From Pirellulales bacterium (GTDB lineage Bacteria > Planctomycetota > Planctomycetia > Pirellulales > PALSA-1355): a DNA stretch of 64,000 bases. The translations under genes and the position numbers were made by a program. The notes under the pieces were generated by a model. That model had not been told where the DNA came from, made no database searches, and saw only the letters and a program-made list of their open reading frames with translations. Of this stretch, positions 10,539 to 29,250 are shown one piece after another. Every line of letters begins with the position of its first letter. The stretch's first letter is position 1. The DNA lies in NCBI GenBank assembly GCA_022844125.1, contig JALHMI010000008.1, positions 1 to 64,000 on the forward strand, given 5' to 3'.

Positions 10539-10865
10539 CTATTCGTCTTCGTCTTCCAGGTCATCGTCTTCTTCTTCGTCATCGTCCCAGTCGTCGTCCT
10601 CTTCATCGTCCCACTCTTCATCGTCATCTTCTTCGTCCTCTTCTTCATCGTCGTCGTCGACCTCTTCCCACTCGTCGTCTTCGAGGTCTTCTTCTTCGTC
10701 GTCATCCTCTTCGTCGTCGTCCTCTTCGTCATCATCCTCATCGTCGAAGGCGAAGGGGTTGTTCTCGACGACGCCCGGAAAGTCGCGCAGCAAGGTGGCC
10801 CGCGACTCGCCGATCAGGGCGGCGAGTTCACGGAGTGCGTCTTCGGGCAAGGCGGTGGTGATCAC
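10539..10865 (-). CDS. Small protein with an extremely acidic C-terminal tail
   Basis: The 108-residue protein has a short ordinary N-terminus (residues 1-40: EDALRELAALIGESRATLL, then an NNPFAF segment). It is followed by about 68 residues made almost entirely of Asp and Glu with a few Trp and Leu. The lower-strand reading frame ends before a clear terminator, and the start ATG at 10865 is plausible, so this is a real gene rather than a repeat artefact. Its neighbour upstream on the same strand is scpB. Acidic tails of this sort can mimic DNA, bind basic proteins or bind divalent cations. No function can be assigned. Confidence 0.7.
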   Translation of the reverse strand: MITTALPEDALRELAALIGESRATLLRDFPGVVENNPFAFDDEDDDEEDDDEEDDDEEEDLEDDEWEEVDDDDEEEDEEDDDEEWDDEEDDDWDDDEEEDDDLEDEDE

Positions 10866-13703: not shown

Positions 13704-13796
13704 GGCGGGAGGAATTCTGAGAGAGGTGGGTGATGACGCCGCATGTTAGCGGCGCCCCATGCGCGGTGCAAACTGGAAGTTGTGTGTGGGTTTTGT

Positions 13797-14018
13797 ACGC
13801 CGAAGGCGTGAAACAAGTCAGCTCGGGGCATCACCCAGGGAAACTAGTCATCCCGCAGATCTCTCTTTGCCCTGCAAGGGCGCAACGCGCTGATGCGTGC
13901 TTAGTTTCGCCCTTACAGGGCTGGAGATATCAGCAGGGGGTCGCAAAATCCCCGGGCGATGACCTTCCCCACGATGCCCGGGGCTGACATGCTGCCGGCC
14001 TGCGGCCGAAAGAATTTT
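13797..14018. repeat. Array of palindromic modules, copy 1 (left flank of the speA block)
   Basis: Three modules sit in the 330-base gap 13704-14033. Module i (13797-13832) contains GCGTGAAACAAGTCAGC. Module ii (13869-13921) is a hairpin of GCCCTGCAAGGGCG facing CGCCCTTACAGGGC. Module iii (13976-14018) contains GGGCTGACATGCTGCCGG. The same three modules occur in reverse order and orientation at 17106-17319. Module i differs at only three of 36 positions between the copies. No gene lies in the gap. Confidence 0.8.
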
Positions 14019-14033
14019 AGTCTTTGCTGAGCC

Positions 14034-14918
14034 TCACGCCTCGGCCAAGAGCCGATCGAGACCCGCCAGCGCGACGGCCCACGGTGTGTGGGATTCGTGA
14101 TAGGTCGTCCACCAGTCGAGAAGCAGCTCGGCTGACGAGTCGATGGCCGCGGCATCGAACTCCCAGGTGTCGAGTGCCAGGGAGATCGACGGCAAGTCAA
14201 GCCGCGCGAGCTCGACCTCCTGAGCCGCGGCCAGCACGGCCGGCACCAGCGCGAACTGTCCGACCGCGGCAACGATCCGCGCGTGGCCCAGCGGCTCGGC
14301 ATATTTCGGCAGATCGAAATGTAGCTGTCCCCACAGCCAGCCCAGCCGCACGACTTCGGGCAGCTCGGCGCTGTTGTTGGCAAGCACGGCTTCGACCAGC
14401 ACCGAGTTGTACGGCGGGAACGCTTCGCCACCGCCGCCAGTGACGGGACGGACCAGCACGATCTCGGCCCGCTCGGGCGCGACGTCCGGTTCGGTGAGCC
14501 GGCGGAGCGTGGCGATGAGTCCCGGCCCGCGGGCTTCCCACTGCTCGCGGATTGGCCCGGTGCGAAGTTCGAGCTCTTCGACCAGTCCGGGAGCGTGCCG
14601 GAGGAACGCGCGATAGAGCGCTGCGATCTCGCGGGCGAGCACTTCGCTGCCCGTCGTGCGAGCGGAGCCGTGCAGCTTTGTCAGGACGACATCGACGAGA
14701 TGCCGCGGCGGTTCGAGGCGCACGCAGAGTGGTAGTGCGTGTGCGAAGAATACCTGTGCGTCGAGGTTCTCGAGGGCGAGCTGGCTCGCGAGGGCGTCGG
14801 CTGCGGCTGCGACTTCGGGCGAGGACGAAAGCTGAGGTTCGGGATGCGCGAAGCGGCACTTTGCCCAGTAAAGGGCGCTGGCACTGGCGCTGGCGATCCA
14901 CTGGGCTTCGGCGGTCAT
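14034..14918 (-). CDS. Conserved-looking protein of unknown function
   Basis: The frame gives 294 residues from the ATG at 14918 (MTAEAQWIASASASALYWAKCRF); a longer version from 14966 is possible. It is mostly alpha-helical in appearance, cytoplasmic (no signal peptide or membrane segment) and rich in Ala, Leu and Glu. I recognise no catalytic motif. It is divergent from speA, 235 bases away, and lies inside the block bounded by the mirror-image repeat arrays. Codon use resembles neighbouring genes and the frame is uninterrupted, which supports a real gene. Confidence 0.6.
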   Translation of the reverse strand: MTAEAQWIASASASALYWAKCRFAHPEPQLSSSPEVAAAADALASQLALENLDAQVFFAHALPLCVRLEPPRHLVDVVLTKLHGSARTTGSEVLAREIAALYRAFLRHAPGLVEELELRTGPIREQWEARGPGLIATLRRLTEPDVAPERAEIVLVRPVTGGGGEAFPPYNSVLVEAVLANNSAELPEVVRLGWLWGQLHFDLPKYAEPLGHARIVAAVGQFALVPAVLAAAQEVELARLDLPSISLALDTWEFDAAAIDSSAELLLDWWTTYHESHTPWAVALAGLDRLLAEA

Positions 14919-15043
14919 AGGAACCTTCGTGTCGTGGTTGGCGGACGGGCGAGTCGCGCTCGCCAAGCGAGCGATTATCGGCTGCGCGCCTGCTGGCGGC
15001 CAGAGCAGCGTGGGGAAGCGGCGGGTGTCTGCCTGCGGTAAAT

Positions 15044-15065
15044 CCTGCCTGCGGCAGGGTTTTTG
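15044..15065 (+). promoter_or_regulatory. Terminator-like hairpin in the speA upstream region
   Basis: CCTGCC (15044-15049) pairs with GGCAGG (15053-15058) and is followed by GTTTTT. It points toward speA about 90 bases before its start, although no plus-strand gene lies upstream to be terminated. It could be an attenuator in a leader or a stray palindrome. Only the sequence supports it. Confidence 0.35.
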
Positions 15066-15153
15066 CCATAGCTCTCCGTCGACCGCGTGTTAATAATTCG
15101 CTACGATTGTTTGTTTGCCTTGAGGTGATTTCCTTCGCGAGGGTTGTCGGAAG

Positions 15154-17073
15154 ATGCTCGATCAAGAAGTGCGACGCTGGACGGTGACTGACGCCGCCGA
15201 GATGTATGAAATCGCGCGCTGGGGCAAAGGCTATTTTTCAATCGGCGAAGACGGGCACGTTCGCGTGCATCCCGAGAAAGATCCCGAGCGCTGGCTGGAT
15301 CTGAAGCAGCTTGTCGACCGGTTGCAACTGCGCGGGATTGACCTGCCGATCCTGATCCGCTTCGCCGAGATTCTGAAGCATCGCCTGGGCGAAATTCACA
15401 AGGCCTTCGAGACGGCCATCGCCGAGAACAAATACAACGGCGCCTACGCCTGCGTTTACCCGATCAAGGTGAACCAGCAGCGGCAGGTGGTCGAGGAAGT
15501 CGTGCGGTTCGGCAAGCCGTTCAAGTTCGGGCTCGAGGCGGGCAGCAAGCCGGAGCTGATGGCCGTGGTGGCGATGGCCACCGACGACACGCCGATCATC
15601 TGCAACGGCTTCAAGGATGCCGAGTTCATCGAGATGGCGATGATGGCCCTCAAGATGGGGCGCACGATCATTCCAGTCGTCGAGAAGTACACCGAGCTGG
15701 AACTGATTCTGAAGCTTTCGGAAAAGATCGGCGTGCGACCACTGATCGGCTTCCGCGTTAAGCTGGCCGCGCGCGGCAGCGGACGCTGGCAGCAGTCGGG
15801 CGGGTATCGCTCGAAGTTCGGGCTGACGGTGAGCGAGATCCTGCGCGCGCTCGGCGAGCTGAAGAGCCGGGGCATGGAAGACTGCTTCAAGCTGTTGCAC
15901 TTCCACCTGGGAAGCCAGATCACGAACATTCGCCAGATCAAGAACGCGCTCAACGAAGCGACCCGGGTTTACGTTGACCTGGCCAAGCAGGGCGCGGGGC
16001 TGGAGTATCTGGACGTCGGCGGCGGATTGGGCGTCGACTACGACGGTTCGCAAACCAACTTCGAGTCGAGCGCCAACTACACGCTGCAAGAGTATGCCAA
16101 CGACGTGGTATACCACGTGCAGACGGTGTGCGACGAGGCCGGCGTGACGCATCCGACGATCGTGTCGGAGAGCGGCCGCGCGGTCGTGGCGTATCACAGC
16201 GCGCTGGTGTTCGGCGTGTTGGGCGTGGCCGGTCAGGGGGAGAACGACGTCCCGCTACAATTGTCGGAAGACGCCGAGCAGCCGCTGCACGATCTCTTGG
16301 ACACATATCAGAACCTGACCGTGCGGAACGTGCTCGAAGCCTATCACGACGCCGGCCAGGCGCTCGACATGGCGCTGAACCTGTTTGCCGGCGGATACAT
16401 GCCGCTCGTGCAGCGCTCGATGGCCGAGAACCTGTACTGGGCGATCTGCCACAAGATCCAGCGGCTCACGAAGCAGCTCGAGTTCGTGCCCGAGGAGTTG
16501 GAAGGGCTCGACGCGCAGCTCAGCGATACGTACTTCTGCAACTTCTCGCTGTTCCAGTCGATGCCCGACAGTTGGGCGATCAAGCAATTGTTCCCGGTGA
16601 TGCCGATCCATCGGCTGGACGAGCGGCCGACGCGGCCGGCGGTGTTGGGGGACATCACGTGCGATTCGGATGGCAAGATCGAGCAGTTCATCGATCGCCG
16701 CGACGTGAAGAAGACGCTGCCGCTGCACACGTTCAACGGTGAGCCATACTACCTGGGCGCGTTCCTGCTGGGAGCGTACCAGGAGATTCTCGGCGACATG
16801 CACAACCTGTTCGGCGATACGAACGCGGTGCACGTGAGCATGGACGAGGGGGGCCAGGTCGTGCTCGAAGCGGTGATCAAGGGAGACACGGTTCGCGAGG
16901 TGCTCGACTACGTGGAGTTCAACGTCGAAGGCCTCCGCAGCCAGTTCCGCGACTCGGTCGAACTGGCCGTGCGCGAAGGCCGCATCGGCTATGAAGAAGC
17001 CGGCCGGTTCCTCAGGTTCTACGAAGGCGGGCTGGAAGGCTACACCTACCTGGAAGAGCCGAGCGAGCACTAG
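15154..17073 (+). CDS. speA: Biosynthetic arginine decarboxylase
   Basis: The 639-residue protein is close to the usual length of SpeA, the PLP enzyme that converts arginine to agmatine for polyamine synthesis. The PLP-binding lysine lies in YPIKVNQQRQVVEEV near residue 105. LHFHLGSQITNIRQIK and the glycine-rich stretch LDVGGGLGVDYDGS follow. VHVSMDEGGQVVLEAVI near the C-terminus is also typical. The start ATG at 15154 gives the standard N-terminus (WTVTDAAEMYEIARWGKGYF). No agmatinase or agmatine deiminase is adjacent. A spermidine-synthase-like domain is found in the membrane protein at 55398-57491. Confidence 0.97.
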   Translation: MLDQEVRRWTVTDAAEMYEIARWGKGYFSIGEDGHVRVHPEKDPERWLDLKQLVDRLQLRGIDLPILIRFAEILKHRLGEIHKAFETAIAENKYNGAYACVYPIKVNQQRQVVEEVVRFGKPFKFGLEAGSKPELMAVVAMATDDTPIICNGFKDAEFIEMAMMALKMGRTIIPVVEKYTELELILKLSEKIGVRPLIGFRVKLAARGSGRWQQSGGYRSKFGLTVSEILRALGELKSRGMEDCFKLLHFHLGSQITNIRQIKNALNEATRVYVDLAKQGAGLEYLDVGGGLGVDYDGSQTNFESSANYTLQEYANDVVYHVQTVCDEAGVTHPTIVSESGRAVVAYHSALVFGVLGVAGQGENDVPLQLSEDAEQPLHDLLDTYQNLTVRNVLEAYHDAGQALDMALNLFAGGYMPLVQRSMAENLYWAICHKIQRLTKQLEFVPEELEGLDAQLSDTYFCNFSLFQSMPDSWAIKQLFPVMPIHRLDERPTRPAVLGDITCDSDGKIEQFIDRRDVKKTLPLHTFNGEPYYLGAFLLGAYQEILGDMHNLFGDTNAVHVSMDEGGQVVLEAVIKGDTVREVLDYVEFNVEGLRSQFRDSVELAVREGRIGYEEAGRFLRFYEGGLEGYTYLEEPSEH

Positions 17074-17105
17074 GGGATAGCTCATCGGCAGCGCCAGCAC
17101 GCCAT

Positions 17106-17319
17106 TTCTTCGGCCGTAGGCCGGCAACATGCCAGCCCTGGGCAACGCCTGGCAACGCCCAGGGATCGCTGTCTTTCTTCCAAGCCCTGGCAGGGCGACA
17201 CTCAACGAGGCCTGGGAGTGTCGCCCTCACAGGGCTTTGAGTCATGAATCTAGAGTCATGAGTCGTCACGCAATCCACGGGGCGATGCCCCGTGCTGACA
17301 TGTTTCACGCCTACGGCGT
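17106..17319. repeat. Array of palindromic modules, copy 2 (right flank of the speA block)
   Basis: This is the reverse-complement counterpart of 13797-14018. Module iii' is at 17106-17143 (TTCTTCGGCCGTAGGCCGG). Module ii' is a hairpin of GCCCTGGCAGGGCG (17184-17197) and CGCCCTCACAGGGC (17222-17235). Module i' is at 17284-17319 (GATGCCCCGTGCTGACATG). The 352-base gap 17074-17425 holds this array and no gene. Confidence 0.8.
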
Positions 17320-17425
17320 CGAATACAGCGGCATGCAACCGCCTACGCATCACCCGTGGCACTCAACTGCGACGACACTACTTTTCGGTATTTCACGACG
17401 CTGTGGGCGCGATACATTGGGTCGC

Positions 17426-29142: not shown

Positions 29143-29230
29143 AGCCCCGGCCTTTGGCCGGGGGTTGGCTTCCGCCAGGATCGAGTGAATCGTGCATGGC
29201 GACGGAACCCCGGGCAGAGCCCGGGGCTGC
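29143..29230. repeat. Inverted repeat of GCCCCGG hairpin arms
   Basis: AGCCCCGGCCTTTGGCCGGGG (from 29143) faces CCCCGGGCAGAGCCCGGGGC (ending about 29227). Each arm can also fold on itself. It lies between the aminotransferase and transketolase genes, next to the transketolase stop codon, and might help end transcription. No T-run follows. Confidence 0.65.
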
Positions 29231-29250
29231 GGGCCACTAACCGAAAAACC

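What the first reader, a model, noticed from the sequence alone, without database searches (positions are those of the whole stretch)
13797..17319. Mirror-image arrays of palindromic modules flank the speA block
Two arrays of about 220 bases, at 13797-14018 and 17106-17319, contain the same three modules in opposite order and orientation. Module i (36 bases) differs at three positions between the copies, and modules ii and iii also match. Each module is itself a hairpin or half of one. The block between them holds one unknown gene and speA. This makes a large inverted repeat that could allow inversion of the block by recombination, or it could mark old non-autonomous insertions.
Basis: seen in the sequence. 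Interest (0 to 1): 0.6.

Follow-up and report, generated by a model that had tools for sequence, protein, structure and literature searches.

The report
Transposase-less copies of a hairpin-ended transposon
The two mirrored arrays beside speA are scattered copies of a small mobile DNA element that lacks its transposase gene; tracing its relatives suggests that an RNA family listed in public databases (Acido-Lenti-1) is really the hairpin ends of a widespread kind of transposon.

Summary
Two ~215-bp arrays (13793-14012, 17107-17323) share modules in inverted order. Each array is itself an imperfect palindrome, A-B-C / C'-B'-A', so the mirror symmetry is weak (155 identities inverted, 149 direct). 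The arrays are two of 19 places carrying these modules in the genome (34 modules; grouped). They are absent from 29 of 29 other speA loci examined, and gene order there shows no inversion. The modules match the 5' flank of an IS200-like Y1 transposase gene elsewhere in the genome (43 of 44 and 23 of 23 nt). A same-family genome carries the whole form A-B-C-[tnpA]-C'-B'-A'. The arrays are best read as transposase-less (MITE-like) copies, probably mobilised in trans. Wider result: these transposases carry the motifs published for 'subclass 1.2' TnpA_Y1, described as having no REP-like ends. Their ends are what Rfam calls the Acido-Lenti-1 sRNA (RF01687): 62 of 110 tnpA loci have an outward-facing match within 200 bp, 33 on both sides, 38 have none; all 30 tnpA-bearing genomes of 149 contain RF01687, and so do 10 of the rest.

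The parts
13793..14012 (-). Array 1: whole tnpA-less element, read A2-B-C-C'-B'-A1 on the + strand (strand given as the A1-to-A2 direction)
   Evidence: R1 hits 13793-13839 (-) and 13951-14012 (+); nhmmer to array 2
13797..13809 (.). A2 end hairpin ACGCC-GAA-GGCGT of array 1
   Evidence: sequence; model
13823..13839 (-). B hairpin of array 1, left half; imperfect stem
13869..13881 (.). C palindrome GCCCTGCAAGGGC
   Evidence: sequence
13909..13921 (.). C' palindrome GCCCTTACAGGGC, inside a 23-nt stretch identical to the 5' flank of the tnpA on contig C4
13951..14012 (+). B'-A1 outer module of array 1, with an enlarged B loop
17107..17323 (+). Array 2: whole tnpA-less element, read A1-B-C-C'-B'-A2 on the + strand
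   Evidence: R1 hits 17107-17163 (-) and 17277-17323 (+)
17111..17123 (.). A1 end hairpin CGGCC-GTA-GGCCG of array 2
   Evidence: sequence; model
17184..17196 (.). C palindrome GCCCTGGCAGGGC
   Evidence: sequence
17223..17235 (.). C' palindrome GCCCTCACAGGGC
   Evidence: sequence
17277..17323 (+). B'-A2 outer module of array 2; 43 of 44 nt identical to the 5' flank of the tnpA on contig C4; sub-threshold Rfam Acido-Lenti-1 match
14034..14966 (-). Gene between the arrays ('unk', 310 aa, no Pfam match at E<=0.01), divergent from speA; array 1 lies 21 bp after its stop codon
15154..17073 (+). speA, arginine decarboxylase; array 2 lies 33 bp after its stop codon
13005..13703 (-). OMPdecase/HUMPS-family gene left of array 1; collinear in relatives

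Best explanation
Each array is a non-autonomous, transposase-less copy of an IS200-like element whose ends are compound hairpins: end hairpin A, conserved linker GCTGACATGTTG, hairpin B, and inner palindrome C. The autonomous form is A-B-C-[tnpA]-C'-B'-A', where tnpA is a ~150-aa Y1 HUH transposase with the Y---Q--HH motif of 'subclass 1.2'. Inferred mechanism: TnpA, supplied in trans, binds the folded A/B hairpins on single-stranded DNA, cuts at the ends and inserts the small element elsewhere, much as TnpA_REP is thought to mobilise REPINs. The two arrays sit just after the stop codons of two divergent genes, which is why they look like mirrored brackets; nothing found suggests that they act on the block as a unit. 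Shown: anatomy, copy number, identity with tnpA flanks, absence from the relatives examined. Inferred: binding, cutting, mobilisation in trans.
For: Own genome: 34 modules over 40 bits among 37 at E<=1, grouping into 19 places. In 13 of the 19 the halves face outward as '-...+': 12 pairs (one of them only 30 bp apart) and one triple; the others are 150-170 bp apart, start to start. Each of the 13 has one A1-type and one A2-type end (12 distinct, the C17 pair being a duplicate whose A1 end is decayed; sequences). The remaining six places are five single modules and the tnpA place on C4. Both hairpins of the module are supported by covariation (32 cells changed on both sides against 11.7 in shuffles; 92.6% of cells paired against 25.5-46.1% when slid). 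The 5' flank of tnpA at C4:153022-153471 matches array 2 in 43 of 44 nt and array 1 in 23 of 23 nt. tnpA of same-family genome G001 (70% identical protein; Y1_Tnp 81.4 bits) has A-B-C on one side and C'-B'-A' on the other (R1 58.2 and 57.6 bits). Control: R1 over 33 loci (189 kb; 29 speA loci plus 4 longer stretches that overlap some of them) gives nothing better than E 0.16. In 39 related genomes R1 at E<=1e-6 is in 6; same-family G002 has neither tnpA nor R1. Arrays are absent from 29 of 29 other speA loci; the HUMPS-unk gap is roughly 100-125 bp in G001 and 330 bp here.
Against: No transposition was observed, and no close strain was available for a base-exact empty site; the intergenic DNA of G001 does not align well. 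The only closely matching tnpA in this genome shows the array-type end on its 5' side only, so that element may be damaged. No target-site feature was identified. The two window copies differ from each other at about 30% of positions, so activity is probably old. G021 has three R1 matches but no tnpA at E<=1e-15 with this query, and many genomes with such a tnpA have no R1 match.
Confidence: 0.87

Rival explanations
1. The arrays form an invertible bracket: recombination between them flips unk-speA.
For: Inverted orientation of two similar sequences 3.1 kb apart.
Against: Longest exact inverted match 12 nt; overall identity about 70%. HUMPS-unk-speA is in the same order and orientation in G001 without arrays; g10946-g11944-HUMPS-speA likewise in G003 and g10946-g11944-unk-speA in G002; unk/speA divergent in 12 of 12 other loci where unk is found. 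Chance that some two of 19 places lie within 3.6 kb is 0.17. The right-hand junction could not be compared.
Confidence: 0.03
2. The module is a structured RNA (as Rfam's Acido-Lenti-1 entry supposes), transcribed and acting as an sRNA or cis element.
For: Rfam lists it as an sRNA; RF01687 matches the B'-A2 module of both arrays weakly (25.6 and 17.4 bits, gathering 37). Hairpins covary. Both arrays lie right after stop codons.
Against: In 110 tnpA loci the nearest left match is '-' in 46 of 58 and the nearest right match '+' in 51 of 56, i.e. outward-facing pairs around tnpA. That is the geometry of DNA ends, not of one transcript. Covariation is equally expected of a DNA hairpin.
Confidence: 0.07
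3. The elements are kept as 3'-UTR hairpins (terminators or mRNA stabilisers), mobility being only their origin.
For: Arrays begin 21 and 33 bp after the stop codons of unk and speA. The A1 end faces a gene's 3' end in 10 of 12 distinct pairs, and in 7 of 8 where both neighbours run the same way (noticed after the fact, one-sided binomial 0.035).
Against: Not present at these genes in 29 of 29 other speA loci. A landing preference explains the position equally well.
Confidence: 0.2

Closest known systems
REP/BIME/REPIN elements with their TnpA_REP (RAYT) genes (PMC6006769, sections read; PMC8266576, abstract read; PMC3116915, search listing only)
   Same: Small, scattered, paired inverted hairpins tied to a Y1 HUH transposase; probably mobilised in trans.
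   Different: No repeated GTAG/GTGG foot in the arrays; two-hairpin outer module plus inner palindrome; the transposase lacks the Y---NP motif of class 2 and has Y---Q--HH.
TnpA_Y1 subclass 1.2 (PMC6006769, Table 1 and section 18, read)
   Same: Length about 148 aa, DH[IV]H, WQ, Y---Q--HH.
   Different: That paper lists 'no' in the REP column and Cyanobacteria and Bacteroidetes as main taxa; here many loci carry compound hairpin ends and come from Planctomycetota, Verrucomicrobiota, Acidobacteriota and others.
TIRtrons / TIRYT (PMC3733652, section 16 and passages, read)
   Same: Y1 transposase genes flanked by inverted repeats, some with moderately abundant scattered TIR families, several in Acidobacteria.
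   Different: Their GGGGWSAS motif, shared by some, is absent from both arrays. Whether the listed acidobacterial TIRYTs are proteins of this family was not tested.
Rfam RF01687 Acido-Lenti-1 'sRNA' (PMC2864571, passages read)
   Same: 46-nt double hairpin equal in position to the B-A module; flanks related tnpA genes.
   Different: Listed as a probable RNA, not cis-regulatory; the window modules lie below its gathering score.
IS200/IS605 (subclass 1.1)
   Same: Same transposase superfamily (NF033573: 71.3 bits over cut-off 55 for L011, 54.4 just below for L012).
   Different: Ends are compound hairpins forming imperfect terminal inverted repeats; this genome has only two such tnpA, 41% identical to each other.

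Membership tests
REP/REPIN (class 2 TnpA_REP) | GTAG or GTGG tetranucleotide at the 5' foot of the hairpin | tested here: not met
   GTAG absent from array 1; in array 2 once per strand, inside the A1 hairpin. GTGG once per array on one strand, not as a repeated foot.
REP/REPIN (class 2 TnpA_REP) | cognate transposase with Y---NP motif | tested here: not met
   0 of 112 transposases of this family have Y---NP; 108 of 112 have Y---Q--HH.
TnpA_Y1 subclass 1.2 | DH[IV]H, WQ, Y---Q--HH, about 148 aa | tested here: met
   Both own-genome proteins. Over 112 loci: 97 strict HuH, 112 WQ, 108 Y motif. WQ was part of the pattern that fetched 80 of them, so that count is partly circular.
TnpA_Y1 subclass 1.2 | position in the published subclass tree or HMM | not tested
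   The paper's profiles were not on hand.
Rfam RF01687 | score at or above the gathering threshold of 37 bits | tested here: not met
   Window modules 25.6 and 17.4 bits. The sister element on C11 meets it at one end (49 bits) and lies just below at the other (35.6).
Non-autonomous (MITE-like) derivative of a transposon | same ends as a tnpA-bearing element, internal gene missing | tested here: met
   43 of 44 and 23 of 23 nt with the own-genome tnpA flank; complete form in G001.
Non-autonomous (MITE-like) derivative of a transposon | demonstrated movement in trans | not testable with these tools
   Needs an experiment.
TIRYT/TIRtron | GGGGWSAS motif shared by some TIRs | tested here: not met
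   Absent from both strands of both arrays; the paper gives it for some TIRs only.

The most novel reading that the evidence does not exclude
Rfam's Acido-Lenti-1 is not an RNA family but the terminal double hairpin of a multi-phylum family of HUH elements driven by subclass 1.2 transposases. That would make these 'orphan' transposases a separate REPtron-like lineage with its own GTAG-less end code and swarms of non-autonomous copies such as the two beside speA.
Probability: 0.8. Interest if true: 0.62.

Novelty: new variant of a known kind. Interest (0 to 1): 0.55.

Why it matters
It assigns a likely substrate to a transposase subclass described as lacking recognisable ends. It also suggests that a public RNA family is mislabelled, so genome annotations and papers treating Acido-Lenti-1 as regulatory RNA (for example PMC13298647, passage read) may need another reading. 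It gives simple, testable ssDNA substrates. The speA block itself needs no special mechanism.

Tried and rejected
Inversion of the block: rejected on synteny and lack of recombinable identity. Clustering as a sign of function: not significant (0.17). Canonical REP by GTAG foot: not met. Class 3 TnpA_Y1 (Planctomycetes; CnGA foot) was considered first and dropped, because the Y motif here is Y---Q--HH, not that of class 3. Base-exact empty site in G001: alignment uninformative. Six of the ten RF01687-positive genomes without a strict tnpA hit still had none at E<=1e-5 with the profile; this counts against a strict one-to-one link, though lost tnpA or incomplete assemblies are possible. 38 of 110 tnpA loci had no RF01687 match at E<=0.05; for one of them, L072, inspection and weak R1 matches (17.8 and 18.8 bits) show diverged B/A hairpins anyway; the other 37 were not read one by one. 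The tnpA loci L104-L132 were not scanned with RF01687, except that L012, the same gene as L104, gave one match (27.8 bits); it is not among the 110. Other Rfam matches in these scans (miRNA families, snaR and similar) were taken as hairpin artefacts. No structure prediction or fold search was run.
Full report
WHAT IS THERE. The two arrays exist as described. Each has the same plan: an end hairpin A, a linker GCTGACATGTT(G), a hairpin B with a G+C-rich stem, and an inner palindrome C (GCCCTnnnAGGGC), followed by the same parts in reverse. Array 1 reads A2-B-C-C'-B'-A1 and array 2 reads A1-B-C-C'-B'-A2, where A1 is CGGCCnnnGGCCG and A2 is ACGCCnnnGGCGT. Because each array is itself an inverted repeat, array 1 is nearly as similar to array 2 directly (149 identities) as inverted (155). 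The 'mirror image' therefore rests mainly on the A1/A2 ends. Both fold better than any of 200 shuffles. The gene speA is an arginine decarboxylase by TIGR01273 and Pfam.

GENOME-WIDE. From 17 modules elsewhere in the genome (window copies and tnpA-adjacent copies left out) I built a covariance model, R1. The stems covary: 92.6% of cells pair, 32 cells changed on both sides against 11.7 in shuffles, score 0.382 against 0.110. R1 finds 34 modules over 40 bits in 6.44 Mb; three more hits lie at E 0.01-0.58. The 17 training modules match by construction; the four window modules (48.0-63.5 bits) and the tnpA-adjacent ones do not. The 34 modules fall in 19 places. In 13 places the halves face outward '-...+': 12 pairs, one of them only 30 bp apart, and one triple; the rest are 150-170 bp apart, start to start. 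Five places hold a single module, and one is the tnpA place on C4. Each of the 13 has one A1-type and one A2-type end, read by eye from the sequences; two of the 13 are a duplicate on contig C17 whose A1 end is decayed, and one A2 end (C1) has a changed base. Some two of 19 places within 3.6 kb occurs in 17% of random placements.

THE TRANSPOSASE. The genome has ten Y1_Tnp (PF01797) matches. One, at C4:153022-153471, has the half element C'-B'-A2 just upstream of its start. This half matches array 2 in 43 of 44 nt, and 23 of 23 nt of array 1 around C'. Its other side shows no R1 match at E<=1. The nearest homologue, in same-family genome G001 (70% identical protein), has the complete plan A-B-C-[tnpA]-C'-B'-A' (R1 58.2 and 57.6 bits). 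Copies in G003, G202 and G245 show diverged versions. As a control, 33 loci (189 kb: 29 speA loci plus four longer stretches overlapping some of them) give no R1 match better than E 0.16. Among 39 related genomes R1 at E<=1e-6 occurs in six: G000 34, G001 8, G003 2, G021 3, G031 2, G038 1. Same-family genome G002 has neither R1 nor tnpA, but G021 has R1 without a tnpA hit at E<=1e-15, and many genomes with such a tnpA have no R1 match: R1 describes a narrow subfamily. The arrays are thus best read as tnpA-less copies.

ACIDO-LENTI-1. Rfam's Acido-Lenti-1 sRNA (RF01687) matches the B'-A2 module of both arrays below threshold (25.6 and 17.4 bits against 37). In the same genome it has 19 matches at E<=1, five over threshold; the best (49 bits) and another of 35.6 bits, inverted, flank a second related transposase on C11. 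That element has the same plan with other stems, and tnpA-less relatives exist (L023/L024, L027). I then asked how general this is. Of 149 Planctomycetota genomes, 30 have this tnpA (query L011, E<=1e-20) and 40 have RF01687 (E<=1e-3). The handles show the same draw of genomes in both calls: all 30 tnpA genomes are among the 40, and 10 of the other 119 are too. In those ten a profile search found tnpA or fragments in four and none in six. 72 of 110 loci have at least one; 62 have an outward-facing match within 200 bp of tnpA and 33 on both sides. The nearest match on the left is '-' in 46 of 58, and on the right '+' in 51 of 56. 38 of 110 have none. Controls: 0 of 8 other Y1_Tnp loci of this genome (L013-L020) and 0 of 14 speA loci scanned (of 29) have a match. 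A model-free test of inverted similarity between the two 200-bp flanks gave a median score of 40 against 12 for cross-locus pairs; 77 of 128 loci exceed the 99th percentile of 762 controls (128 of 139 loci had enough flank on both sides). Loci with outward matches on both sides include Terriglobus albidus DSM 26559 (L186), an Acidobacteria MAG (L169), Verrucomicrobia (L191), Deltaproteobacteria (L175), Nitrospirae (L192) and Gelidibacter gilvus (L205, Bacteroidota).

WHICH TRANSPOSASE CLASS. The proteins have DH[VI]H, WQ and Y---Q--HH at about 150 aa (97, 112 and 108 of 112, none with Y---NP; WQ was part of the fetching pattern for 80). These are the key motifs given for subclass 1.2 in PMC6006769 (sections 12, 17, 18 and 27 and passages read), which lists 'no' in the REP column and calls it generally without typical IS200 terminal structures. 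PMC3733652 (section 16 and passages read) describes Y1 genes with long inverted repeats ('TIRYT'), partly in Acidobacteria; its GGGGWSAS motif is absent from the arrays.

IS IT IN PRINT? In the paper library 'Acido-Lenti-1' occurs in three papers and 'RF01687' in two. Of PMC2864571, PMC10059132 and PMC13298647 I read the passages holding the term; none of these passages links it to a transposase. PMC7682815 was seen only in the search listing. Further searches listed REP/RAYT papers; of the five shown, none holds the Acido-Lenti term. Supplements were not readable and most subscription papers are not held, so novelty is provisional.

THE speA BLOCK. The arrays are absent (nhmmer E<=0.01) from 29 of 29 other speA loci with up to 1.5 kb on each side. 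Order and orientation HUMPS(-) unk(-) speA(+) are the same in G001. In G003 (no unk) and G002 (no HUMPS) the remaining neighbours are collinear, and unk is divergent from speA in 12 of 12 other loci where it is found. The HUMPS-unk gap is roughly 100-125 bp in G001 (from tblastn alignment ends) against 330 bp here, the difference being about one array; the gap itself does not align well enough for an exact empty site. The ABC transporter genes right of speA were not found in the relatives' stretches, so the right-hand junction could not be compared. Longest exact inverted match between the arrays: 12 nt. There is no support for inversion.

WHY THEY LOOK LIKE BRACKETS. Array 1 starts 21 bp after the stop of unk and array 2 33 bp after the stop of speA, each with its A1 end next to the stop; the genes are divergent, so the arrays mirror each other. 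Over the genome the A1 end faces a gene's 3' end in 10 of 12 distinct pairs, and in 7 of 8 where both neighbours run the same way. Gene calls come from a simple script, which in two of the 12 cases (C5:34385, C4:413508) also drew an open frame across the element; four single modules were not counted; the pattern was noticed after the fact (one-sided binomial 0.035). It may be a landing preference or retention as a 3'-UTR hairpin.

JUDGEMENT. The identity of the arrays as transposase-less copies is well supported. Mobilisation by TnpA through folded single-stranded ends is inferred from the superfamily (PMC8266576, abstract read) and untested here. The wider claim about Acido-Lenti-1 and subclass 1.2 is the interesting part.

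Noticed in passing
G000:C17:86925-87913 and 101449-102437 (in L233): A 989-bp inverted duplication at 99.7% identity, 13.5 kb apart, carrying one copy of the array; unlike the speA pair this could be a real substrate for recombination.
   Followed up: partly
L014 (G000:C6:77959-81327): A class-2-like Y1 transposase (YMHQNP) sits inside many copies of a third repeat family (GGGTGGCnCTGACAA... / ...CCGACAnTTGTCGGTGCCACCC); by eye similar repeats are near L006 and L022.
   Followed up: no
window 14034-14966 (-): 310-aa protein without a Pfam match, divergent from speA in 12 of 12 other loci of the order where it was found: a conserved partner of arginine decarboxylase?
   Followed up: partly
window 10539-10865 (-): Open frame made almost only of Asp/Glu after its first 40 or so residues; low-complexity, may not be a gene.
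   Followed up: no
G049 (unnamed Planctomycetota genome): Very strong RF01687 pairs (up to 62.4 bits, inverted, about 90-112 bp between halves) but no tnpA of this family at E<=1e-5: orphan non-autonomous swarm or another driver.
   Followed up: partly
window 29209-29247 (+): Weak R1 match (19.4 bits), possibly a decayed module.
   Followed up: no
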